Of a stretch of 33,874 nucleotides of DNA, positions 2,343-26,120 are shown piece after piece (the first letter of the stretch is position 1; the number at the start of each line of letters is the position of its first letter). A model generated the notes under the pieces. That model was not told where the DNA came from and did no database searches. It saw nothing but the letters and a program-made list of their open reading frames with translations. The DNA is from a virus. The stretch lies in IMG/VR virus record IMGVR_UViG_3300025840_000124, positions 1 through 33,874 of that record. One strand, written 5' to 3'. Position numbers and translations under genes: made by a program.

Positions 2343-2634
2343 TTTTATTTTCCTCATTCAAATCATGTACATGTAACGCAATGATGGTATAGTGTAGAAT
2401 TTTTAAAAGGTCTGCTCTATTGAGACCTTCTTTCTTTCCATACCTTTGTGCATACTTAAGTACATTTCCAATTGCAAAACCCATACCGTGGCCACAATCA
2501 ATAATAAATTCAGTAGACTGAAAATTGTTTTTAGAGTAGTGACCTCCATAGGTTTTATTTATATAATCAAGGAGCTCTTTTACAAGGGCTCCCTCATTAA
2601 ACTTGTAGTTTATTTGTTCTTTTCTTTTAAACAT
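2332..2634 (-). CDS. DUF3310-like small protein
   Basis: A 100-aa protein with the arrangement seen in phage DUF3310-type proteins: an N-terminal helix, then a Y-x-x-HY segment, then TEFIIDCGHGMGFAIGNVLK, a KYAQRYGKK motif and a C-terminal helix. Proteins of this family are sometimes labelled as nucleotide-kinase related, but I see no Walker motif and do not infer an enzyme activity. It overlaps the AAA+ gene upstream by 8 nt and gp45 downstream, so it belongs to the same polycistronic run. Two conserved His residues in the Cys-Gly-His segment could be functional. Confidence 0.75.
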   Translation of the reverse strand: MFKRKEQINYKFNEGALVKELLDYINKTYGGHYSKNNFQSTEFIIDCGHGMGFAIGNVLKYAQRYGKKEGLNRADLLKILHYTIIALHVHDLNEENKNDN

Positions 2635-3775
2635 TTTCCTCCTCTTCAGTAGTTTCAGGATTCTCTGCTGTTAACACACCATCATCTACTTTTGAATAGA
2701 GATCTAAGAAAGCAGCTTTAGTATCTTCATCAAATCTTGAGATGCAAAGATCAATTGCTTTATCTCTTTTATTAAAAATAGAGAATGTTTGTACAATGTG
2801 ACAAAGTCTTCTTGTTGAAATGACTTCATCGACACCATCATCAAAGAATGTTTTTCTGATGATATCTGCCCATGTCACAAGTTTATCAGCAAAATCTTCA
2901 TCGACTGAGCCAAACTTTTTCATATGTTTAAGTACAATTTTCTTTTCGATATTAAGACCAGGAAACTTCTGATCAATAGAGATAGTAAATCTCTCAAGGA
3001 ATGCTTCATCAATAATAGAAGCTGCAGTGAATCTACCATCTTCAGAACCTTTACCTTTTGTATTAGCTGTGGCAATTACATTAAAACCTTCTGCAGGTTT
3101 TACAATTTCACCAGTCTTTTTGACCAATACAGGTTTTCCTTCTAGGATTCCTTGTAAACACATGATCTTATTGGTTGCTCTATCGATCTCATCAAGGAGA
3201 AGTATAGCACCATTTTCCATTGCTTTAAGTACAGGACCTTTGGCAAAAACTGTTTCACCATCAATCAATCTGAAACCACCGAGTAAATCGTCCTCATCGG
3301 TCTCTGGATTAATTTGTACTCTAATAAATTCTTTACCAACTTTAGCACATGCTTGTTCGACCATAAATGTTTTACCATTACCAGATAAACCAGATATGTA
3401 AGTTGGATAAAACATATTTGATTTAATAATTTTTGAAATGTCGAAGTAAGCACCCCAAGGGACGAATGTATCGTCTTGAGAAGCAAAGTTCTTTTCATCA
3501 TTTACAATTGATTGCATTTGTGCTGCATTCTTTGGAATTGTATTGACGATTGAAGTATTAACATCAGCTTTAATTGGTTCAATTAATCCAGCTAAATCAT
3601 AGGTACCAATTTTAACTCTATTCGCATTAGTAGTTAAATCTTTCCAATCTTTACCTGAATAACCAAATTCTTTACCGATGTCAGTAATAACTGATTTACG
3701 AAATTGAGTTTGATCTGGATATCTAGATACAAGCTCTTTTAAGATTATTTGGGTTGAGGCTTTCAAATTATTCAT
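2627..3775 (-). CDS. cobS: MoxR/CobS-like AAA+ ATPase
   Basis: A 382-aa AAA+ protein: Walker A GLSGNGKT at residues 129-136, Walker B LLLDEID at 192-198, an ATANTKG sensor-1 segment near 235-241 and an ERF arginine finger at 261-263. The LLGGFRLIDG insert is typical of the MoxR/CobS branch. In bacteria such ATPases work with a VWA-domain partner in metal chelatases or protein remodelling, and the adjacent gene at 3872-6073 encodes exactly such a partner. cobS-like genes are common in marine T4-like phages. No cobN-like chelatase subunit is in the window, so cobalt insertion is unproven. AAGGAG lies 12 nt before the ATG, and the gene has its own promoter. Confidence 0.88.
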   Translation of the reverse strand: MNNLKASTQIILKELVSRYPDQTQFRKSVITDIGKEFGYSGKDWKDLTTNANRVKIGTYDLAGLIEPIKADVNTSIVNTIPKNAAQMQSIVNDEKNFASQDDTFVPWGAYFDISKIIKSNMFYPTYISGLSGNGKTFMVEQACAKVGKEFIRVQINPETDEDDLLGGFRLIDGETVFAKGPVLKAMENGAILLLDEIDRATNKIMCLQGILEGKPVLVKKTGEIVKPAEGFNVIATANTKGKGSEDGRFTAASIIDEAFLERFTISIDQKFPGLNIEKKIVLKHMKKFGSVDEDFADKLVTWADIIRKTFFDDGVDEVISTRRLCHIVQTFSIFNKRDKAIDLCISRFDEDTKAAFLDLYSKVDDGVLTAENPETTEEEENV

Positions 3776-3871: not shown

Positions 3872-6073
3872 TTATTTTTCAGCAACTGCTCTACCAAAAT
3901 TAGTTAAAAGCGACTTATTATTCTTTTTGGATTTACTGTATCTCTTAAATTGAGATCTAATTGTACCTGTTGAAGCATCATCTGCTACATCAAATCCATC
4001 ATCATCTGTTGAGAAATTCTTTCCATTCTTTACAATATAGAATTGATTATAACCAAGCTTATTATTAAATGTTACGCATTTATGTTTTGAATATTGTCTA
4101 TTAAATGGTTTACGCTCATCTGATCCATATACATAAGCATCTTCTGCATGTTCAATCTTTCTCCAAAAGTTATATGAACCATCTGCAATAAAGAATCCTA
4201 GAGTACAAACTCCATAATTCTTTTGTAGGTTTTCTAATAAAGCTCTAGTTCCACCAGATGATCTATCTGGTAAAGTAACTTTTCTTCCATCAATGTGAAT
4301 AATAGTTTTACCCCATCTATCTGTAGTATTAAGGTAATTAATTTCTCTAGATCTTTGAATATGAATATTATTTGCCTCACCATCAGATAATACAACTAAA
4401 TTCATTTTATCAACTGCATGTTTTGCTTTAAATTTATTGATTAAATCATGGGATCTAATAAGAGCTTCGTTAAGAGGTGTTGAACCATAGTCTTCGTACT
4501 TAGAAAGTATATCTCTTTCATACCAACCATGATCACCTTCACCTAAATACTTTCTCATATAGATATGAAATAGTGCTTCTTCGTAATCACCCTTTTTAAG
4601 AGTTGATGAAATAATATGTGGTAATGAAAGTCCACCATTATGTATTTCACTTTCTTTAGACTCAGCTAAAGGTGTTATAACTTCTTCACCCCATCTATCC
4701 TTACCAAATCTAGTATTATCTGAAGTAAATCCATAAACATCGAATGGTATGTTAACAGTTTTGCAGAATACAACTAAATGTAAAAGTTGATCCATTACAT
4801 TAGACATTGTATTATTCATTGATCCAGAGTAATCAATTAGCATTACCATACCATGATTTTTGGCATCAGCTAATTTTGTGACTTTTGCAAAAATATCATC
4901 ATTAGTCTTATATGACCATAATCTATTAATGTCTAATGAACCTGTTCTTGCAGTTTGAGCTCTAGTATAACGATATGCAGCTTTTCTCATTTCAAATTCT
5001 TTAACTGCATAGTTAACATTTTTCTTAACTTCTTTAATATAAGATTTAAAGTTGCCTTTATATGTTTCATTATTTAAATACTCTGTCCATTGAGAGCTAG
5101 CAATTCTATCTCCTTGTAGGTCAGAGTATTCAATAATCATTTGTTTAGCAACCTCTTTGTTAAACTCATTAGCAACTGTATCTTGATTGCCATACTCATC
5201 TCTATCTAAGAGAGTATGTTCATTACGTCTGAAGTTCTCATCTGTTAATGAGACATCTTCGTCTTTATAAGTTTTTCCATCTCTTCCAGTTGCTGAAGAT
5301 TCCTCTTCGCCTCTATCAGATTCTCCTGCATCTCTGTTATTAGATTCAGCGTCTTCTTCTTGAGCTTTAGAGTCTCCATTAGGTTGACCTGTAGATTGAT
5401 CTCCATCTTCTTCTCCTTTAGATTCCATATCATCATGACCCATTTGTAAAGGATCATCGTTATTTTCATTTTCTTGTTGTTCATTGTTTGGTGCTGCAGG
5501 TGGTTCCATTAATTCTTCTTGGTTTTCTTTGGTATAAGCAAGAATATCTCTGCATAATTGAGTTACTTCCTCAAAGGTTTCTGTTGTCATTGCTCTATTA
5601 TAATAAACAATTTCTTCATCAGTAAATGGTACATCAATATGATCACCAATTTTTGCTTTAAGATTAATTTTATCAATAAGCTTTACTTGATCCCAATCCA
5701 TGTCTGAAAGATCACCAAAGAATTCTTCATCAAATAATTTTTTGTATCCTCTTGACATTGGGCCAATAAGACCAGCATAGTTTTGCTTTATATTTCTTTC
5801 AATACGAGCATCTTCGATTACGTTAATATAAGATCTTGGACAACCTTCGAGTTTCTCTGGACTATCATGCCAACCTTCAAAGGGTGTAAATAGAGCATGA
5901 CCAACTTCGTGACCAATTAATAAATCAGTAACATCTTTACCCATGTCTTTCCACTGTGGAAGACCAAGGATACGATCTTTAATATCAAACCATGCAGTCT
6001 GATAATTACCATATTGAACAGTAATATTTTCCTTAGCTAATAATTTTGCGAGTGTTGATTTTTGATTTGCCAT
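3872..6073 (-). CDS. cobT: CobT-like protein: HExxH metallopeptidase plus VWA domain
   Basis: A 733-aa protein in three parts. The N-terminal part (about 1-180) has a zinc-protease helix HEVGH at residues 55-59, followed by an INVIEDARIE helix at 83-92 that could supply a further metal ligand. A strongly acidic, low-complexity linker spans about 185-275. The C-terminal von Willebrand A domain has a MIDAS motif D414-Y-S416-G-S418 and a later VVLSDGEAN segment. VWA proteins of this type pair with MoxR/CobS ATPases, and that gene follows directly. The linker and VWA resemble CobT of cobaltochelatase, whereas HExxH suggests proteolysis; metal chelation and protein maturation are both open. AAGGAA lies 6 nt before the ATG. 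Confidence 0.87.
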   Translation of the reverse strand: MANQKSTLAKLLAKENITVQYGNYQTAWFDIKDRILGLPQWKDMGKDVTDLLIGHEVGHALFTPFEGWHDSPEKLEGCPRSYINVIEDARIERNIKQNYAGLIGPMSRGYKKLFDEEFFGDLSDMDWDQVKLIDKINLKAKIGDHIDVPFTDEEIVYYNRAMTTETFEEVTQLCRDILAYTKENQEELMEPPAAPNNEQQENENNDDPLQMGHDDMESKGEEDGDQSTGQPNGDSKAQEEDAESNNRDAGESDRGEEESSATGRDGKTYKDEDVSLTDENFRRNEHTLLDRDEYGNQDTVANEFNKEVAKQMIIEYSDLQGDRIASSQWTEYLNNETYKGNFKSYIKEVKKNVNYAVKEFEMRKAAYRYTRAQTARTGSLDINRLWSYKTNDDIFAKVTKLADAKNHGMVMLIDYSGSMNNTMSNVMDQLLHLVVFCKTVNIPFDVYGFTSDNTRFGKDRWGEEVITPLAESKESEIHNGGLSLPHIISSTLKKGDYEEALFHIYMRKYLGEGDHGWYERDILSKYEDYGSTPLNEALIRSHDLINKFKAKHAVDKMNLVVLSDGEANNIHIQRSREINYLNTTDRWGKTIIHIDGRKVTLPDRSSGGTRALLENLQKNYGVCTLGFFIADGSYNFWRKIEHAEDAYVYGSDERKPFNRQYSKHKCVTFNNKLGYNQFYIVKNGKNFSTDDDGFDVADDASTGTIRSQFKRYSKSKKNNKSLLTNFGRAVAEK

Positions 6074-8971: not shown

Positions 8972-9158
8972 GTATCATCCTCATTCTTTCTGCAAACATT
9001 TTTCTTTGGAGTTTACCTAATCTTCTTCCTGAGATTCGGATTCTCTCCATAGTCATTGCTAGCTCTTTTCTTTTTACTTTACGTTTAAGCTCTTTCTTAA
9101 ACCTTACTTTGTTTCTTCTGATTTGACCGACTCTTTGTTTTTCGCTTAAATGTTTCAT
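8952..9158 (-). CDS. Small highly basic protein between gp55 and gp47
   Basis: A 68-aa product with about a third Lys/Arg spread along a predicted continuous helix, and no Cys or recognisable domain. The start overlaps the gp55 stop as ATGA, with GGAG about 12 nt upstream, which is a typical coupled arrangement; it overlaps gp47 by 20 nt. A nucleic-acid-binding role would fit the charge but is inference. It could be a chance open frame, though nothing else would fill the roughly 180-nt gap in this tightly packed region. Confidence 0.6.
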   Translation of the reverse strand: MKHLSEKQRVGQIRRNKVRFKKELKRKVKRKELAMTMERIRISGRRLGKLQRKMFAERMRMIRESSNS

Positions 9159-9718
9159 GACATGAATAACTCCAGCTTTTCAGCTTCCTTTTCTTTTTTA
9201 GCAAATTCTTTAATAGCAGTATCTTTTTGTCTTACTGTACTAATTCTTTGTCTTAGTGTATCGACATATGCCATAGTTTCACTTGCTGTATCGTTATCCA
9301 TACCCATTGAAACAAAATCTTCAATACCCATTTTCTCAATGAATCGAAACTTAATGTCTTGTTGTTTCTTTTCTTTTGTTATTCTACGTATAAATGCAAA
9401 ATAGCAAATTTGAGTAAAGTAACTAAAAGCATTTGGCTTTCCTGTGCGAGTTGCAGTATCTATATTATAGTTACCAATTGCTCTTAAACAATTTTCAACA
9501 GCATCCATAACCATTTCTTCTCTATAAGTATATCGTACAAAGTTTGGTCGATGTGATAGACCCTCTGCAATTCTTATAAAGCATTTTGCAATATAGTCTG
9601 TAACTTTAGGAATTTCATTTCCTTTTTCTCTAGCTCCTTGTGCCTCAACAGCATAATCAAAAACAGCTTGAGAAAATTCTTTATTATTAACATAATGTGC
9701 TTTATTTTTTTGGCTCAT
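9155..9718 (-). CDS. 55: Late-transcription sigma factor gp55
   Basis: Directs host RNA polymerase to TATAAATA late promoters. The 187-aa protein (T4 185 aa) contains a sigma region 2-like core: YREEMVMDAVENCLRAIGNY, then an NAFSYFTQICYFAFIRRI segment that matches the melting and -10 recognition helix of gp55 and sigma-70 proteins. Several exact TATAAATA boxes in this window are its expected targets. Its own promoter is of the other class (TGTACT-N17-TATAAT), as expected for a gene needed before late transcription. GGAG lies 8 nt before the ATG. Confidence 0.94.
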   Translation of the reverse strand: MSQKNKAHYVNNKEFSQAVFDYAVEAQGAREKGNEIPKVTDYIAKCFIRIAEGLSHRPNFVRYTYREEMVMDAVENCLRAIGNYNIDTATRTGKPNAFSYFTQICYFAFIRRITKEKKQQDIKFRFIEKMGIEDFVSMGMDNDTASETMAYVDTLRQRISTVRQKDTAIKEFAKKEKEAEKLELFMS

Positions 9719-12237: not shown

Positions 12238-12708
12238 TTATACAAATTCAAAATTAGTATATGCAAATGTAACATCCATTTGTACATACTCTACACTTTC
12301 AACTTGTGCATCAAATTCCACTGGTGTTATATTTGTTGGAAATACATCTTTAAACTTAATTTCTTTTGTGACATTATTATGTGACGATAAGATTAAAAGA
12401 GTAGCATCTGCTTTAAATCCTTCAGCATTATTTGATTGAGCAATATTATGTAACCAATCAAAGGTTTCAATATAGTTTTCCATATCTTCTGTTACATTAA
12501 CTCTTAATGCCAAATCTTCAAAGCTTAATCTGTCGCCTGTAAAAGCTAAATTAACACCTCGATATGGAGTATCTACTGCTGATATACTAATTCCTGGAAG
12601 CGTAGCAGCAACAGCAAAGTATTCGATATTAGGATACTTTGTGCTATCTACTTTAAATTGAAAGCCTACTGGGCTTAAGAAGTTTTTATTTGTAGTTAAT
12701 GTTGCCAT
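12238..12708 (-). CDS. Tail-tube-like protein, second copy (gp19 paralogue)
   Basis: A 156-aa protein whose ending, FPTNITPVEFDAQ followed by a beta strand pair, parallels the gp19 tube protein at 17917 (FPTNISEIEVSYDSENT). The overall order also matches: an N-terminal FQFKVDS strand, a central LALRVNVTEDMENY segment and WLHNI. It is probably a tube-family structural protein, such as a tube initiator or terminator, or a baseplate component (in T4, gp48 and gp54 have tube-like folds). I chose the ATG at 12708; a TTG at 12726 is possible. Neither has a Shine-Dalgarno, and a late box lies 5 nt before the ATG. It follows the gp23 terminator. Confidence 0.78.
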   Translation of the reverse strand: MATLTTNKNFLSPVGFQFKVDSTKYPNIEYFAVAATLPGISISAVDTPYRGVNLAFTGDRLSFEDLALRVNVTEDMENYIETFDWLHNIAQSNNAEGFKADATLLILSSHNNVTKEIKFKDVFPTNITPVEFDAQVESVEYVQMDVTFAYTNFEFV

Positions 12709-12713
12709 ATATC

Positions 12714-12721
12714 TATTTATA
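12714..12721 (-). promoter_or_regulatory. T4-type late promoter (TATAAATA) for tube paralogue
   Basis: An exact late box between the gp23 terminator and the tube-like gene. It ends 5 nt before the ATG, so the predicted transcript would be leaderless or nearly so. Placement directly after a strong terminator makes chance unlikely. Confidence 0.7.
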
Positions 12722-12729
12722 CGCAAAGA

Positions 12730-15261: not shown

Positions 15262-15921
15262 CTATGATTTTAGATTTAACTTAGAGAGGAAATTCTTAAA
15301 AGCTCGTATCTCAGCTTCCGGCAATCCAGTAGCTGGAGTGCTTTTAATTTCAGTCTCAATTTCTTCAATATCTCGTTGACGAATAAGTCCATTATCCCAT
15401 ACCCATTCAACTCCTTCCATAACACCATTTACAAATGCAGACGGTGCGGATGGATCTTGAACAATATCTACTGTTGATAACATAAAGTCATCTCCAACAT
15501 ATTGGACTCCATTCTTCTGTACAAGACTTCCCATACCACGACTTGATACACCAAGCTTAACACCACCTTCGAGCAAACCTTCAACGATTTGTCCCATAGG
15601 GGTCTTAAGAATTGATGCTTTTCCTATAACATCATTTCCCTGCCAATGCAGATCAGTGATCTTATGTGAAACTTTATCAAGATTAACTGTTGGTCCTTCT
15701 GGATGATTTAACTCTCCAACAGCTCTTCCTGTTTTAACTTGTTCAGTCACATATTTGTCAACGGCTTTCTCCATGACTCTTTTTTCGTATATGCGACCAT
15801 TTCTGTTCTTTTGATTTGATTGCATGAATACACCTTCGATAAAATAGTTCTTTGAACCATCTTTCTTGGCTTCACAAATCATTTCTAAATTGTTTTCTAC
15901 GTATTCAGTAATTAACTTCAT
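15262..15921 (-). CDS. 21: Prohead core protease gp21
   Basis: A serine protease that cleaves the scaffold and the capsid N-terminus during head maturation. The 219-aa protein (T4 212 aa) shows the family's catalytic neighbourhoods: His73 in GELNHPEGP and Ser126/127 in LGVSSRGMGSL. The YFIEGVFMQSNQKNRNGRIY segment before them is typical of gp21 proteins. It lies 1 nt from the stop of the 74-aa gene upstream and 10 nt before gp22, in the T4 order. Confidence 0.95.
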   Translation of the reverse strand: MKLITEYVENNLEMICEAKKDGSKNYFIEGVFMQSNQKNRNGRIYEKRVMEKAVDKYVTEQVKTGRAVGELNHPEGPTVNLDKVSHKITDLHWQGNDVIGKASILKTPMGQIVEGLLEGGVKLGVSSRGMGSLVQKNGVQYVGDDFMLSTVDIVQDPSAPSAFVNGVMEGVEWVWDNGLIRQRDIEEIETEIKSTPATGLPEAEIRAFKNFLSKLNLKS

Positions 15922-17916: not shown

Positions 17917-18444
17917 TTAAGAAGTTGTGTTAGATTCCCAGTACTGGACTTGGAATTCAACAGTAAATTCTTCAATTGTGTTTTCTGAGTCATAACTGAC
18001 TTCAATCTCTGAGATATTTGTAGGGAATAATCCTCTAAAATCATATCTCTTTGTCACTTCACCAGCTTTATTCAATTGTTCTACAATTGCGTCTGCTTGG
18101 TAGTCACTTGGATTTGAAAGTCCGGTATTTTCGTTATGACTATTAATGCCGTTCATCCAACGCTCCATTGCATTTCGAACTTCGAAACCAACATCGTTAA
18201 TAACAGTGATTGTCCAAGGATCAAATGTTCTATCACCAGCTATTTGTAATTGTCTACCTCTGAAAAGTACAGGGATAGGTGCAATTACTGATGAAGGCAT
18301 TTGAGCTGTTTTACACATGAATGATGTCAATTCAACATCACCTTGTGCGTAACTTGGATAATTCATAGTTACTTTGAATAGGTTGGATCTTGCGCCACCG
18401 CCTACTAGTTTAGATTTAAAATCATCTACTCCTAAAATTGCCAT
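17917..18444 (-). CDS. 19: Tail tube protein gp19
   Basis: Subunit of the inner tail tube on which the sheath polymerises. The 175-aa protein (T4 163 aa) starts MAILGVDDFKSKLVGGGARSN, followed by the KVTMNYPSYAQGDVELTSFM segment, a FDPWTITVINDVGFEVRNAM segment and a GLFPTNISEIEVSYDSENT ending, all typical of gp19. It lies 12 nt after gp18, as in T4. A shorter relative is encoded at 12238-12708. Confidence 0.95.
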   Translation of the reverse strand: MAILGVDDFKSKLVGGGARSNLFKVTMNYPSYAQGDVELTSFMCKTAQMPSSVIAPIPVLFRGRQLQIAGDRTFDPWTITVINDVGFEVRNAMERWMNGINSHNENTGLSNPSDYQADAIVEQLNKAGEVTKRYDFRGLFPTNISEIEVSYDSENTIEEFTVEFQVQYWESNTTS

Positions 18445-18456
18445 GTCTTAATCCTC

Positions 18457-20142
18457 CTATTGTCCAGCGATCTCGGAGAATTCAACTCCGGTTCTGGTTG
18501 CTATGAAGTTCAATGTAATGAAGTTAATAGATCTTGCTGGTTTGATATACATATCAGCTACAAATCTATTTGCATCAATTACTTGACCTGTGTTATTTGT
18601 TTCGTCACAAACTACTAAGAAGTCAGTTATACCTCTTCTACCTTTGACATCCCTTAGGAATGGCTCGATAAGATTTCTAAACTGAGCTCTTGTAAATTCG
18701 TCGTTAAATTCAAATAGTTGTGCCTTAGCGGCTGTACTAATTGCTTTTTCTAATACGATGAATAATCTACGAACATTAATTCTATCGAATGCAGAAGGTC
18801 TACTTAATAAAGTTTTGTCACCAAATAATATTGTACCTTGTCCAGGTAATGATACTAATGGATTAACTCTTGCTTTATAAAGAGTATCTCTGTCTGCTTT
18901 CTTAGGGTTAAATGCTAATTTTGTTACGCCTAGAAGTTGTCCTCTGTTAACACCAGCTGGTGAGAACCATGCATCAGCAACATTGTCTGTATTTGCACAT
19001 AGTCCTGCATGATGTCCAGCAGCTCCAATCCATCTGTATACATCGTTATATTTGTCATATACATAAAGAGCTGTTGAGTCACATGCTGCATAAGAGCTTG
19101 ATGTTAATCCATCAGCAAATGCTTTCACATCTGCAGCTGGGCTTGAACTTCCAACGGTATCTTCTATTGGAGGTGATACAAAGGCCATACAATCTTTTCT
19201 TGCATTCACAATTGAAATTAAATCTTCTGCCATTGTATCAGCGCCATTAGCATCTGGTACTCCGAAAAGAAGATTAACATCTACTGTTTCTGCATCTTCG
19301 AATAGATCGTAACCTAATTGTAATTCACCTGTTGTAGGAGCGTTATCATCTGAACCACCAGAAAGTGAATCAGAAATAACAGCACTTACAGTTGTAAAGG
19401 CGTTTTGAGCAGCTATTGTATTACCAGCTTCTGTTAAAGTAGATTCATGGCCAATCCACCAAATATACTCAGAGTTATTGTTAATAACATCTTTATAATA
19501 ATTTGATGTACCATCATCTTTCTTTGCATCAGAACCTTGTGATACATATGCAAATGTTTCTAATACTGTGTTAACAGTACCTGATATAGCACCATCTTCA
19601 TCAACTACTACAATGTGTAGTTCGTCGTCAGATGATGATTTACCTAAATCACTTGCATAATTTGATGTACCAGGAGCAGAATCAAAGTTACCAGCATATG
19701 CCCAGGTAGAGAAACCTCCGCCGGGTGTACATACTTCAACTTTTAAACTGTTACCTAATTCACCAGGATATTTAGCAGCCCAAGGTCCTTTACTGGACTG
19801 TGAACCGTTAGCATAATTATTTTCGTAGTCTTCATCGTTTTTGATGAGTTGTCCTGAACCATCAACGGTCGCGTTATCGTGACCACTGGCTGCACGGACT
19901 ACTTTCAGTGCGTTTCCATACTTTAAGAATGACGCAGCTACGAGAAAGTATTTTGCGGTATTGTTGTCTGGTGTTCCAAATTTCTCAGCAAGTTCTGATT
20001 CAGAACCTACTGTTACTATTTCTTCGACCGGACCCCAATTAAAAGAACCAACAAATCCACCTATTGAAGTTGAAACTGCTGGTACTACTCCGGTAGCATC
20101 GATCTCTTTGATCTCTACGCCGGGTGATACTTGAAATGCCAT
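18457..20142 (-). CDS. 18: Tail sheath protein gp18
   Basis: Contractile sheath subunit. The 561-aa protein (T4 659 aa, with protruding domains often reduced in marine phages) starts MAFQVSPGVEIKEIDATGVV and has the conserved GGFVGSFNWGPVEEIVTV N-terminal block. The conserved C-terminal core includes LPGQGTILFGDKTLL, a FDRINVRRLFIVLEKAI helix and RARSINF-like strands near the end. A late promoter lies about 65 nt upstream, and GAGGAT precedes the ATG. Confidence 0.96.
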   Translation of the reverse strand: MAFQVSPGVEIKEIDATGVVPAVSTSIGGFVGSFNWGPVEEIVTVGSESELAEKFGTPDNNTAKYFLVAASFLKYGNALKVVRAASGHDNATVDGSGQLIKNDEDYENNYANGSQSSKGPWAAKYPGELGNSLKVEVCTPGGGFSTWAYAGNFDSAPGTSNYASDLGKSSSDDELHIVVVDEDGAISGTVNTVLETFAYVSQGSDAKKDDGTSNYYKDVINNNSEYIWWIGHESTLTEAGNTIAAQNAFTTVSAVISDSLSGGSDDNAPTTGELQLGYDLFEDAETVDVNLLFGVPDANGADTMAEDLISIVNARKDCMAFVSPPIEDTVGSSSPAADVKAFADGLTSSSYAACDSTALYVYDKYNDVYRWIGAAGHHAGLCANTDNVADAWFSPAGVNRGQLLGVTKLAFNPKKADRDTLYKARVNPLVSLPGQGTILFGDKTLLSRPSAFDRINVRRLFIVLEKAISTAAKAQLFEFNDEFTRAQFRNLIEPFLRDVKGRRGITDFLVVCDETNNTGQVIDANRFVADMYIKPARSINFITLNFIATRTGVEFSEIAGQ

Positions 20143-20206: not shown

Positions 20207-20214
20207 TATTTATA
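20207..20214 (-). promoter_or_regulatory. T4-type late promoter (TATAAATA) for gp18
   Basis: An exact box in the 90-nt gap between the ATP-grasp gene and gp18. The local sequence TATTTATAAATA is self-complementary, so a TATAAATA also reads on the plus strand at 20211-20218. The minus-strand box faces gp18 with a long leader of about 60 nt. Confidence 0.65.
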
Positions 20215-20232
20215 AATATACATGTTTCAACA

Positions 20233-21666
20233 TTAATGGTCTGAGTTATCATTTCTTAATGCAACATCACTTACAATAAATAATCTATCAGGATGTACTG
20301 AAACTCTAAATTGTGTCATTGTTTTTCTATTGACTAACATTTCAGAAGCTGTATCCTTCTCTGTTAGTCCTATTTCTATTGTATATTTACGATTATTAAA
20401 TGTTACTCCATGTTCTATTACGGGTCTTTTATCAAATGGTTCCATACCTCTAGTAGGTTCTGATATATCAACTATTTCACTTTTGAATGTATGACCATTC
20501 TTTTTCCAAGTAACTATATCGCCGTCAATATCAATTTTATCTACATGTAACATAGTTGCTGATGCTGAGTTACCAGTATCAAATTTAGCTCGTATTGGAT
20601 TTTCTTCCATACCATCTAATATAATACTTTCAATATAACCTACTTCATATCTCATAAATGGTCTACGTCTTCGTTCTTGGCCAAACCAATTTAATATAAT
20701 ATCTAATGTTTGTTTGTCTGTAATTTTCTTTGTATGAGTTCCATCTTCTATATTATATCCCATAAAATGTGATCGTATACCTGGTGAACCATTCACTTCT
20801 AATATATAAAAATCTTTACCAACCTTACAGTGATCAACACCGCAGTATGCAGCTCCAGTTGCTCTTGCAGCATTAATTACTAATTGTTTTTCTTTTTCTG
20901 ATAAAATATAAGGTAATGTTTCTGCACCTAAATGAACATTGTTTCTAAATTCGCTTTTATTTTGCTTAATTCTTTCTGCACTTGCAACAATTTTACCATC
21001 AACCAATAATGTTCTTATATCAGATTTTAAATCAAAGTATTCTTGTATTAATAAATCAGCATTAAACTTCCAAAGTGATTGAGCAACTGAGATTAAAGAT
21101 GCCATATCATTGACTTTTGAAACACCTACACCTTGTGTACCTTTAAGTGTTTTAATAATAACTGGAAATTTACCACCAATGTTTTTATGAGCCTGCTCAA
21201 TTGATTTAACATTATTAATAATTGATGTTCTTGGGACTGGAATATTATTTCTTTCAAGTGCAATAATATTTGACATTTTATTATCGCATAATAACATTGT
21301 TTCTAAATCATTTACAAGAAAGAATCCAATTGTTTGTAATGATGATACTAATGATTGGGCAGTCAGCGTTTTAATTGCTCCAGCTCTCACAAAGACTAAA
21401 GAATCTTTTACTTTAAGAGATACTTCTTTATCTTTACCATCAACATTATGAATTGTCACCTCTCCAATCTCAACATCCTTTGAAGCAATATAAGCTTCAT
21501 CAACGTCGATCATCGTACTCTTCATTCCATACTTAGATACAAGCTCTTGCATATGATCAGCAAAAGTACCTTCTTCGTCTCCAAGACCAAGTATTATGAC
21601 ATGAAGATCTTTCATTGGAATTTCTTTATGATTATCTTCTATTAAAAATTTTGTGAACCCTTCCAT
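20233..21666 (-). CDS. RimK-like ATP-grasp ligase fused to RimB-like retropepsin domain
   Basis: A 477-aa two-domain protein. Residues about 20-330 form a RimK-type ATP-grasp ligase: PVIIKTLKGTQGVGV at 168-182 (ATP lysines and glycine loop), QEYFDLKSDIRTLLV at 208-222 and the metal-binding EVNGSPG at 290-296. In bacteria RimK adds glutamates to ribosomal protein S6. Residues about 340-470 match RimB-type retropepsin proteins: AKFDTGNSAS with catalytic-type DTG at 363-365, RPVIEHGVTF, and a MLVNRKTM ending block. The gene sits between terminase and sheath genes. I keep the ATG at 21666: GAGGT lies just upstream and FTKFLIE resembles leader sequences of marine phage proteins. An ATG at 21615 is the alternative. 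Confidence 0.88.
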   Translation of the reverse strand: MEGFTKFLIEDNHKEIPMKDLHVIILGLGDEEGTFADHMQELVSKYGMKSTMIDVDEAYIASKDVEIGEVTIHNVDGKDKEVSLKVKDSLVFVRAGAIKTLTAQSLVSSLQTIGFFLVNDLETMLLCDNKMSNIIALERNNIPVPRTSIINNVKSIEQAHKNIGGKFPVIIKTLKGTQGVGVSKVNDMASLISVAQSLWKFNADLLIQEYFDLKSDIRTLLVDGKIVASAERIKQNKSEFRNNVHLGAETLPYILSEKEKQLVINAARATGAAYCGVDHCKVGKDFYILEVNGSPGIRSHFMGYNIEDGTHTKKITDKQTLDIILNWFGQERRRRPFMRYEVGYIESIILDGMEENPIRAKFDTGNSASATMLHVDKIDIDGDIVTWKKNGHTFKSEIVDISEPTRGMEPFDKRPVIEHGVTFNNRKYTIEIGLTEKDTASEMLVNRKTMTQFRVSVHPDRLFIVSDVALRNDNSDH

Positions 21667-23255
21667 TCTACCTCTAACCAGACGTTTCCTTCAGCGTCTT
21701 TTGTATATTTATTCTCTTGATAACTACCGCTTTCGACAAAGCCAAATGGTAACATATCATCTTGTATTGCCTTTAATCTTTCTTTATATAACATATCTTT
21801 CATATCAATATTCGTTAATGATTGAAAAATATCAGTTGTTGTAAACCAAGCAAATAATACTAGATTCATCATTAAATCATCATGATTTGGTGCAATTGCC
21901 ATAAAGGTATTTCCTCTACTAACAAATGTACTCATTTCAATTATTGTTTGTGAATCATGTATAATAAGCTTATTCTGTTCTATTAAGTCTTTAATACTTG
22001 AACATCCAATTCTTTTTACTCTTCGAGTCATTGTTGCACCAAGAGCATTTGCTTTAATACTTGACTCTACAAACATATTTTCATATTCTAAATCATAATA
22101 TAAACCATTACAAACAACAGCACCCTGATCATTACTTTCAATTACAACATATGCATCATTATAAGTTTTTGCATATTTGTATATTATATCTGGTAATAAC
22201 ATTGGAGATATATTATTATCTCTAAATGTTGCTACTTGTTCAAAAGGCTTTTCAGTTACATCAATAATAGTAAATGTACTATAGTCTTGATTACGTCCTT
22301 TCGAAACATCCACGGTCATTACATATTCATGGCCTTCTTTAGGTTGCTCATATATAAAGGTATTCTCTTTATAGAACTCAGGATCTCTACTTTGTTGTGC
22401 TAATAAATGATTAGCTCCAATAAGTGTATTTCCTCTACCATGAAATGTATTACCGAACTCTTGTTCAAATTGTAACTCAGAAGTATTATTTATTGTCTCT
22501 TGTTTCCACTTTTCATCTCTTCCTGGTACATCCCACCAATCGACTCTGAATGGTTTAAACTCATTTGTTCCTTGTACAGCACCTTCCCACAATTTATGAT
22601 ATACATTACCTATACCATTTGCAGTAGATGTAATTACAATCTGTGTATCTCTACCAGCAGATACTACAGGATATGTTGATGTATAAAACTGTGCATCATT
22701 TTCTACAAATGCAAACTCATCTAAAAACAATAAATTAATAGAAAGACCACGAATAGAACTACCACTTGTAGCCGATGCGATAATCTTACTATTATTACTA
22801 AATTCTATACTTCCTTTATTTAATGCCTTACAACCTGGCTGTAAAAAGAAAGGAAGATTTTCTAATGCAAGAGTAATCCTAGCCAACATTTCTCTTGCCA
22901 CTGCACCCTTATTTGCTAGTATTGCAATTGTTTTTTCTGGGTGAAAACATGCATACCATAAAAGATATACAACGGATGAAATTGATTTACCACTCTGTCT
23001 GCATGCTAATACAATACTAAATCTATTATCTTTAAAATGCTTAAACATTTCTTCTTGATATGGATAAAGATTAAATGGTACTAATCCTTCATCTAACGAG
23101 ATAATCTTTACATAATTACTTGCAAAGTATGCAGGATCTGACATACATTTTTGATATTCTTGGATTTCTTCTTTTGTAAAAGAAGTCTCTACGCCATCAC
23201 GCTTAACGTTAGGATTACCAAGATATCCATATTCATTATTCTTGATTCTCTGCAT
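21642..23255 (-). CDS. 17: Terminase large subunit gp17
   Basis: DNA-packaging motor ATPase and headful nuclease acting at the portal. The 537-aa protein (T4 610 aa) has Walker A CRQSGKS at residues 85-91 and Walker B LLFLDE at 175-180, with the TSTANGIGN coupling motif after them. A C-terminal RNase H-like nuclease has the acidic TVDVSKG, VIESNDQGA and late APNHDDLMMNL motifs. It overlaps gp16 by 20 nt and the ATP-grasp gene by 25 nt, so these are tightly coupled. Confidence 0.96.
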   Translation of the reverse strand: MQRIKNNEYGYLGNPNVKRDGVETSFTKEEIQEYQKCMSDPAYFASNYVKIISLDEGLVPFNLYPYQEEMFKHFKDNRFSIVLACRQSGKSISSVVYLLWYACFHPEKTIAILANKGAVAREMLARITLALENLPFFLQPGCKALNKGSIEFSNNSKIIASATSGSSIRGLSINLLFLDEFAFVENDAQFYTSTYPVVSAGRDTQIVITSTANGIGNVYHKLWEGAVQGTNEFKPFRVDWWDVPGRDEKWKQETINNTSELQFEQEFGNTFHGRGNTLIGANHLLAQQSRDPEFYKENTFIYEQPKEGHEYVMTVDVSKGRNQDYSTFTIIDVTEKPFEQVATFRDNNISPMLLPDIIYKYAKTYNDAYVVIESNDQGAVVCNGLYYDLEYENMFVESSIKANALGATMTRRVKRIGCSSIKDLIEQNKLIIHDSQTIIEMSTFVSRGNTFMAIAPNHDDLMMNLVLFAWFTTTDIFQSLTNIDMKDMLYKERLKAIQDDMLPFGFVESGSYQENKYTKDAEGNVWLEVEWKGSQNF

Positions 23256-26112: not shown

Positions 26113-26120
26113 TATTTATA
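26113..26120 (-). promoter_or_regulatory. T4-type late promoter (TATAAATA) for gp13
   Basis: An exact late box in the 77-nt gap between the terminator hairpin after the fibre genes and gp13. The predicted leader includes AGGAAT. Confidence 0.75.

What the first reader, a model, noticed from the sequence alone, without database searches (positions are those of the whole stretch)
20233..21666. RimK-type ligase fused to a RimB-type retropepsin inside the virion operon
Seen: one 477-aa protein with RimK ATP-grasp motifs (GTQGVGV, EVNGSPG) followed by a DTG retropepsin-like domain, lying between terminase gp17 and sheath gp18 and overlapping gp17 by 25 nt. Established: bacterial RimK glutamylates the C-terminus of ribosomal protein S6, and RimB is a retropepsin-like protein encoded in rim operons. 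Inference: the phage may carry both an amino-acid ligase and a trimming protease in one chain, acting on host ribosomes to redirect translation or on a virion protein. Late expression with tail genes favours a virion or late-host target.
Basis: partly seen in the sequence, partly recalled or inferred. Interest (0 to 1): 0.7.

Follow-up and report, generated by a model that had tools for sequence, protein, structure and literature searches.

The report
Phage ligase–protease with head-packaging tag
A gene common in ocean T4-like viruses of bacteria joins an enzyme that probably adds amino acids to proteins and one that probably trims them off again, and it starts with a short tag like the one T4 uses to load proteins into its head for injection, so these viruses may inject a protein-modifying (perhaps ribosome-modifying) machine.

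Summary
ORF 20233-21666 encodes a 477-aa RimK ATP-grasp ligase (residues ~21-335) fused to a C-terminal RimB/Rlo-type retropepsin (~342-465), confirmed by Pfam, PDB profiles and AlphaFold2. It is no artefact. IMG/VR holds over 500 relatives. Type A (this window) lies between gp17 and gp18 in every informative contig; type B (~28% identical, e.g. Pelagibacter phage Mosig) lies between regA and gp43. The genomes checked carry one copy, and both domains are under purifying selection. [quoted passage not shown] the phage order is reversed and its RimK domain forms a separate clade. New here: the first ten residues (MEGFTKFLIE) match the T4 capsid-targeting sequence in exact register (MKTYQEFIAE). 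The strict pattern picks only this ORF in the window, only ipII and ipIII in a T4 control stretch, and none of >1,900 interior methionines. Late-promoter motifs place the gene last in the gp13-gp17 unit, and the YerA41 homologue was detected in virions. Best reading: a late-made enzyme packaged in the head and injected, adding and trimming a C-terminal tail on a host protein. The target (bS6 or other) is not shown.

The parts
20233..21666 (-). RimK-RimB fusion protein, 477 aa
   Evidence: ORF and translation; >500 relatives; median dN/dS 0.148
21637..21666 (-). residues 1-10 MEGFTKFLIE: T4-type capsid-targeting-like sequence with possible gp21 site after E10
   Evidence: same register as T4 IPII/IPIII MKTYQEFIAE; strict pattern in 100/120 type A loci, 0 of 1041 interior Met; kept where it does not overlap gp17; role of residues 4, 7, 8, 10 from PMC9026906
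20662..21606 (-). RimK-like ATP-grasp ligase, residues ~21-335
   Evidence: Pfam RimK; AF2 Z 28.8 to 7qys; catalytic-core residues R94 K130 K172 R218 R232 D278 E290 N292 conserved
20272..20643 (-). RimB/Rlo-type retropepsin domain, residues ~342-465
   Evidence: Pfam Zn_protease 31.9 bits > 27; PDB profile 9g59 E=5e-7; AF2 Z 14.1/13.6/12.6 to 2pma/9g58/9g59
20572..20580 (-). DTG active-site motif, D363-T364-G365
   Evidence: invariant in types A and B and YerA41
20207..20214 (-). TATAAATA late-promoter motif in front of gp18
   Evidence: present in 113/114 type A loci, against about 0.03 expected per gap
26113..26120 (-). TATAAATA motif in front of gp13; next one downstream on this strand is 20207, so gp13-gp14-gp15-gp16-gp17-fusion look like one late unit
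   Evidence: identities of gp13-gp15
21642..23255 (-). terminase large subunit gp17, overlaps the fusion gene by 25 nt
   Evidence: PHROG terminase large subunit
18457..20142 (-). tail sheath gp18
   Evidence: PHROG tail sheath E=2e-134
15262..15921 (-). head maturation protease gp21, the enzyme that would remove the tag
   Evidence: PHROG E=4e-82
9155..9718 (-). late sigma factor gp55
   Evidence: PHROG E=5e-51

Best explanation
A two-in-one protein-tailing enzyme of marine T4-like phages that is made late, probably loaded into the prohead by an N-terminal capsid-targeting sequence (cut after E10 by gp21), and delivered with the DNA. In the host, the RimK domain would ligate amino acids (most likely alpha-linked glutamate) to a protein C-terminus using ATP, and the retropepsin domain, working as a dimer, would trim the tail or set its length, as RimB does for RimK. 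The most likely single target is a host translation protein (bS6 or another), because RimK family function and the regA linkage of the sister lineage point there; the target is inferred only. Shown: both domains, their catalytic residues, selection, synteny, late-promoter context, tag similarity. Inferred: enzyme activity, packaging and injection, target.
For: Both domains by sequence and fold. Residues equivalent to RimK R64, K100, K141, R189, R203, D248, E260, N262 are invariant in types A and B, YerA41 and Melnitz; DTG invariant. Purifying selection, strongest on the protease: dN/dS 0.146 ATP-grasp, 0.102 RimB. N-terminus M..[FY]..[FY][LI].E in the register of T4 IPII/IPIII: 100/120 strict and 118/120 M..ar..ar in type A; F..[FY][LI].E in 80/80 type B although A and B are only ~28% identical. 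Strict pattern: the fusion alone in the window, 0 of 187 Mosig and 0 of 56 HTVC008M ORFs, 0 of 1041 interior Met, and exactly ipII and ipIII among 18 T4 ORFs. Kept in 17 type A and 19 type B loci where the motif lies wholly outside the upstream gene. Late unit. YerA41 relative annotated structural protein; listed as 'ribosomal protein modification protein', detected by LC-MS/MS of purified particles (PMC7354516). regA linkage in type B.
Against: No activity, processing or virion detection has been shown for types A or B. The YerA41 N-terminus lacks the tag motif, its gene is middle-expressed, and 63 proteins incl. polymerases were found in that preparation, so carry-over is possible. Type B has the motif about two residues further in than T4's. 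20 of 120 type A loci miss the strict pattern, incl. L146. Type B lies in a replication/translation-repression block, 71 of 78 without a TATAAATA within 600 nt, which does not suggest late expression. Acceptor-chain residues S7/R8/S14/S68 are not conserved, and the bacterial RimBK studied did not glutamylate RpsF (PMC11957791), so bS6 as target is weak.
Confidence: 0.45

Rival explanations
1. Same enzyme, not packaged: an auxiliary gene expressed in the infected cell that modifies the host ribosome (bS6) to redirect translation; the N-terminal motif is an unrelated leader.
For: RimK family function; type B and Melnitz RimK lie next to the translational repressor regA; bS21 occurs in the same phages.
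Against: bS21 is reported as core in pelagimyophages (PMC7029224) and HTVC008M lacks any RimK match, so that link is not specific; late expression in type A is late for redirecting translation; leaves the conserved tag unexplained.
Confidence: 0.25
2. The enzyme modifies a phage head, packaging or tail protein during assembly (adds and trims an acidic tail).
For: Position between gp17 and gp18, late unit; cyanophage RimK genes also lie among virion genes; gp16 and gp67 often end in Glu (69/89 and 35/55).
Against: The sister lineage has it beside regA; no neighbour ends invariably in Glu.
Confidence: 0.15
3. The ligase acts on a different acceptor or amino acid (small peptide, poly-Glu in solution, or another tag), and the protease recycles it; RimK-like by descent only.
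For: Chain-binding residues S7/R8/S14 are not conserved, N-terminal domain is the most variable part (dN/dS 0.228); scores below the NCBIfam rimK_fam and S6-ligase cut-offs.
Against: Catalytic and glutamate-contact residues R64, R189, N262 are kept; a poly-Glu-type protease is fused to it.
Confidence: 0.15

Closest known systems
Bacterial RimBK hybrid (Desulfotalea psychrophila DP2392; PMC11957791)
   Same: RimK ligase and RimB retropepsin in one chain
   Different: RimB is N-terminal in the bacterial protein (also seen here in Thioclava and Aureibacter) and C-terminal in the phage; the phage RimK domain is a separate clade, 100/99
Pseudomonas RimK + RimB (separate genes)
   Same: Same two domains and catalytic-core residues
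   Different: One chain; chain-binding residues not conserved; viral, no RimA; target unknown
RloA/RloA2 retropepsins (9g58, 9g59)
   Same: Closest solved folds of the C-terminal domain, Z 12.6-13.6
   Different: Rlo proteins are secreted single-domain enzymes with signal peptides (PMC12239564)
T4 internal proteins IPII/IPIII
   Same: First 10 residues in the same register
   Different: The rest is an enzyme, unrelated to the small T4 proteins; packaging not shown
Pelagibacter phage Mosig QOI68969 ('putative glutathione synthetase') and YerA41 QSM00767 ('structural protein')
   Same: Full-length RimK-RimB fusions, same order
   Different: ~28-29% identity; other genomic context; fusion not noted in their annotation
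Cyanophage 'S6 glutaminyl transferase' (PHROG 2599)
   Same: Phage RimK-like ligase
   Different: No protease domain; groups with a Pseudoalteromonas ligase, 100/99

Membership tests
RimK-type ATP-grasp ligase | RimK fold over both the N-terminal and ATP-grasp domains | tested here: met
   AF2 vs 7qys Z 28.8, 289 residues, 2.8 A; Pfam RimK 120.6 bits vs cut-off 21
RimK-type ATP-grasp ligase | ATP/Mg and inner glutamate-contact residues (R64, R189, D248, E260, N262) | tested here: met
   R94, R218, D278, E290, N292 invariant
S6--L-glutamate ligase RimK (equivalog) | Curated NCBIfam cut-offs | tested here: not met
   rimK_fam 137.9 vs 143.4; PRK10446 87.7 vs 331
S6--L-glutamate ligase RimK (equivalog) | Growing-chain contacts S7, R8, S14, S68 (PMC10092738) | tested here: not met
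   G27, L28, F35, I98 in the window; variable in relatives
S6--L-glutamate ligase RimK (equivalog) | Glutamylates bS6 C-terminus | not testable with these tools
RimB/Rlo retropepsin (DUF785, clan AA) | Profile and fold | tested here: met
   PF05618 31.9 bits vs 27; 2pma/9g58/9g59 top fold matches
RimB/Rlo retropepsin (DUF785, clan AA) | DTG catalytic motif | tested here: met
   invariant KFDTGN
RimB/Rlo retropepsin (DUF785, clan AA) | Homodimer; cleaves poly-Glu | not testable with these tools
   no complex prediction or assay available
Bacterial RimBK hybrid | RimB at the N-terminus of RimK | tested here: not met
   RimB is C-terminal
Bacterial RimBK hybrid | Groups with bacterial RimK/RimBK | tested here: not met
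   phage types A, B, YerA41, Melnitz on one side of a branch, 100/99; long branches noted
T4-type CTS-tagged internal head protein | N-terminal 10-residue CTS, aromatic at 4 and 7, I/L at 8, E at 10 | tested here: met
   MEGFTKFLIE vs MKTYQEFIAE; conservation and background
T4-type CTS-tagged internal head protein | Late expression | tested here: inconclusive
   late-promoter motifs fit for type A, not for type B; no transcript data
T4-type CTS-tagged internal head protein | Cut by gp21, present in virion, injected | not testable with these tools
   only the distant YerA41 homologue was detected in particles

The most novel reading that the evidence does not exclude
Abundant marine T4-like phages pack and inject a self-contained writer-eraser enzyme (ligase plus trimming protease, reversed order of bacterial RimBK) that resets the C-terminal tail of a host translation protein from the first minutes of infection: a virion-borne ribosome-modifying enzyme.
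Probability: 0.22. Interest if true: 0.85.

Novelty: new variant of a known kind. Interest (0 to 1): 0.62.

Why it matters
Head-injected effector enzymes are well known in coliphage T4 (Alt, internal proteins; from general knowledge) but little explored in the ocean's T4-like phages. If this protein is cargo, hundreds of marine phage genomes carry an injected protein-tailing enzyme whose substrate can be found by mass spectrometry in an existing phage-host pair (Mosig on Pelagibacter HTCC1062). It also gives a second, reversed RimK-RimB fusion, useful for asking how ligase and protease are coupled, and the tag pattern offers a simple way to list other candidate injected proteins in these genomes.

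Tried and rejected
Assembly artefact: rejected, hundreds of independent contigs with the same fusion and neighbours. Descent from the bacterial RimBK hybrid: not supported (order reversed; separate clade). A Vibrio RimK-RimB fusion suggested by a long tblastn hit: rejected, two adjacent genes in one frame. A neighbouring virion protein as the obvious acceptor: none ends invariably in Glu. bS21 co-occurrence as support for a ribosome target: not specific. Conserved N-terminus as a mere by-product of the gp17 overlap: rejected, kept where there is no overlap. Host S6 C-terminus: could not be reached. A scan with the YerA41 protein found nothing in IMG/VR; bacterial genome scan gave only weak RimK-only hits in Patescibacteria. 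No Rfam match in the window. PDB fold lists of the full model were filled by the ligase, so the protease was folded alone. Literature searches found no paper on a phage RimK-RimB fusion.

Full report
What is there. The gene is on the minus strand of a 33.9-kb fragment of a marine T4-like phage (a virus record). Reading along the gene's strand the order is gp13, gp14, gp15, gp16, gp17, the fusion, gp18, gp19, gp20, gp67, gp21, gp22, gp23. The fusion starts inside the last 25 nt of gp17 and is 477 aa long.

Both halves are real. Residues 128-302 match Pfam RimK (E=7.9e-35) and the AF2 model (mean pLDDT 80.6) superposes on whole RimK structures (7qys Z 28.8; RimK with RpsF, 5zk6, Z 28.6), ahead of LysX/ArgX (27.4), synapsin and glutathione synthetase (~22). 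Residues 334-477 alone pass the Pfam Zn_protease cut-off (31.9 vs 27 bits), match RloA2, RloA and DUF785 chains by profile (E 5e-7 to 1e-4), and their own AF2 model (pLDDT 82) matches 2pma, 9g58 and 9g59 at Z 14.1, 13.6 and 12.6, well above retroviral proteases and Ddi1 at about 9. All 36 relatives scanned carry both domains.

Catalytic residues. Aligned with bacterial RimK, eight core positions (R64, K100, K141, R189, R203, D248, E260, N262 of E. coli numbering) are identical in all phage relatives. Of the residues that touch a bound poly-Glu chain in P. aeruginosa RimK (PMC10092738), the inner ones are kept (R64, R189, N262) and the outer ones (S7, R8, S14, S68) are not. The protease keeps KFDTGN throughout types A and B. 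dN/dS is 0.148 overall, 0.228 for the N-terminal domain, 0.146 for the ATP-grasp part and 0.102 for the protease, so the protease is the most constrained part.

Distribution and place. A first scan of IMG/VR gave 104 relatives, a profile scan at least 563. Type A (60-100% identical) lies between gp17 and gp18 in every informative contig; one 58% relative (L082) is in another context. Type B, about 28% identical, which includes isolate Mosig, lies right after regA and on the gp43 side: 73 of 84 loci in that count show regA on one side and the next gene of the gp43 block on the other, 6 more show regA with the contig ending downstream. Mosig has gp17 directly followed by gp18, while type A contigs G002 and G012 have regA but their only RimK at the gp17/gp18 site: one copy, two places. 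Pelagibacter phage HTVC008M has neither domain, so the gene is accessory. Melnitz has the RimK part only, also after regA.

Origin. In a maximum-likelihood tree of the RimK domain, types A and B, YerA41 and Melnitz lie on one side of a 100/99 branch, bacterial RimK and RimBK and the cyanophage RimK on the other; long branches make the inner order unsure. The published bacterial hybrid has RimB first (PMC11957791), as have two plasmid-borne ones read here. The phage fusion therefore looks separate. Neighbouring rimK-rimB genes in that order exist in Vibrio, so such a fusion is easy to picture.

Expression. TATAAATA, the T4-type late motif, occurs 13 times in the window against 5.7 expected, none of 100 shuffles reaching 13. 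On the coding strand it stands before gp13 (26113) and before gp18 (20207) with none between. In 113 of 114 type A loci the gap between the fusion gene and gp18 holds it, and 117 of 120 have none in the 300 nt upstream of the fusion gene. The window also encodes the late sigma factor gp55. So in type A the gene is, by inference, the last of a late unit. Type B shows no such pattern.

The N-terminal tag. T4 internal proteins enter the head by a capsid-targeting sequence of ten residues; positions 4 and 7 matter for targeting, 8 and 10 for cutting by gp21 (PMC9026906). Read from the T4 record, IPII and IPIII start MKTYQEFIAE. The window protein starts MEGFTKFLIE: aromatic at 4 and 7, L at 8, E at 10. 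The strict pattern holds in 100 of 120 type A loci, the aromatic pair in 118 of 120, and F..[FY][LI].E in 80 of 80 type B loci. In the window the strict pattern picks this ORF only; in a T4 stretch of 18 ORFs it picks ipII and ipIII only; no interior methionine in any genome tested shows it (0 of 1041; 0 of 1914, partly the same genomes). The 103-kb relative G001 has three more ORFs with it, all at true N-termini. Because the first codons overlap gp17, the conservation could have been gp17's; but 17 type A and 19 type B loci keep the motif where it lies wholly outside the upstream gene. AF2 gives the segment low confidence, as expected of a removable tag. The window has its own gp21, and gp23 in the same window carries a comparable ...NFISE|AAA... 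stretch (seen in the translation; cleavage inferred). The pattern was chosen after seeing the sequence, so the counts describe how rare it is elsewhere; they are not a blind test.

Virion evidence. The distant YerA41 relative is annotated as a structural protein; the paper lists g112, 'ribosomal protein modification protein', as middle-expressed and detected in purified particles (PMC7354516). That g112 is QSM00767 follows from its place after the ribonucleotide reductase genes. Carry-over is possible.

Mechanism. The most economical account is a protein-tailing writer-eraser: RimK domain adds residues to a C-terminus, retropepsin domain trims, perhaps also stimulating the ligase in cis as RimB does for RimK (PMC11957791). 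If packaged, it acts at once on entry, like other T4-type internal proteins. The target is open: bS6 is the family precedent, but the changed outer pocket, and the lack of RpsF glutamylation by the one bacterial hybrid tested, keep that below even odds.

Verdict. It is a new variant of a known kind (RimK-RimB fusion), with an unexpected possible role as injected cargo.

Noticed in passing
L260:11896-12987, 18265-19011; L261:14047-14652 (strict); L260:13609-13968, 19635-19910 (relaxed), all in relative G001: Five other ORFs with T4 capsid-targeting-like N-termini (e.g. MKRFKSFIYEA, MKTFKEFRKE); one is HAD/polynucleotide-kinase-like, the rest match nothing. Candidate injected proteins.
   Followed up: partly
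L082:4708-7260: A 58%-identical relative in a third context: in frame behind a cytidylyltransferase-like/DUF5824 stretch, with neighbours that start MLNFKSFLIEA and MKSFSAYLEL.
   Followed up: partly
L237:2950-3828 (S-RIM8) and L239:2686-3564 (S-RIM32): Cyanophage RimK-only genes also lie among virion genes, 763 nt upstream of gp17 and between gp23 and the tail completion gene, though they are not close relatives of this RimK.
   Followed up: partly
L032:1163-2753 and L051:610-2134: The gp17 reading frame breaks about 550 nt before the fusion gene (frameshift, or sequence error).
   Followed up: no
window 12238-12726 (-): A second gp19-like tail-tube protein after gp23, besides gp19 at 17917-18444.
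   Followed up: no
window 2627-3775 and 3872-6073 (-): AAA ATPase with a CbbQ-type C-terminus next to a 733-aa protein without Pfam match that reads like a metal-ion/VWA partner; a MoxR/CobS-CobT-like pair.
   Followed up: no
L098, L099 (G002, G001): Type A relatives encode ribosomal protein bS21, as do Mosig and Melnitz.
   Followed up: partly
L242:811-2187 (Aureibacter plasmid): A bacterial RimBK hybrid whose protease motif reads DSG rather than DTG.
   Followed up: no
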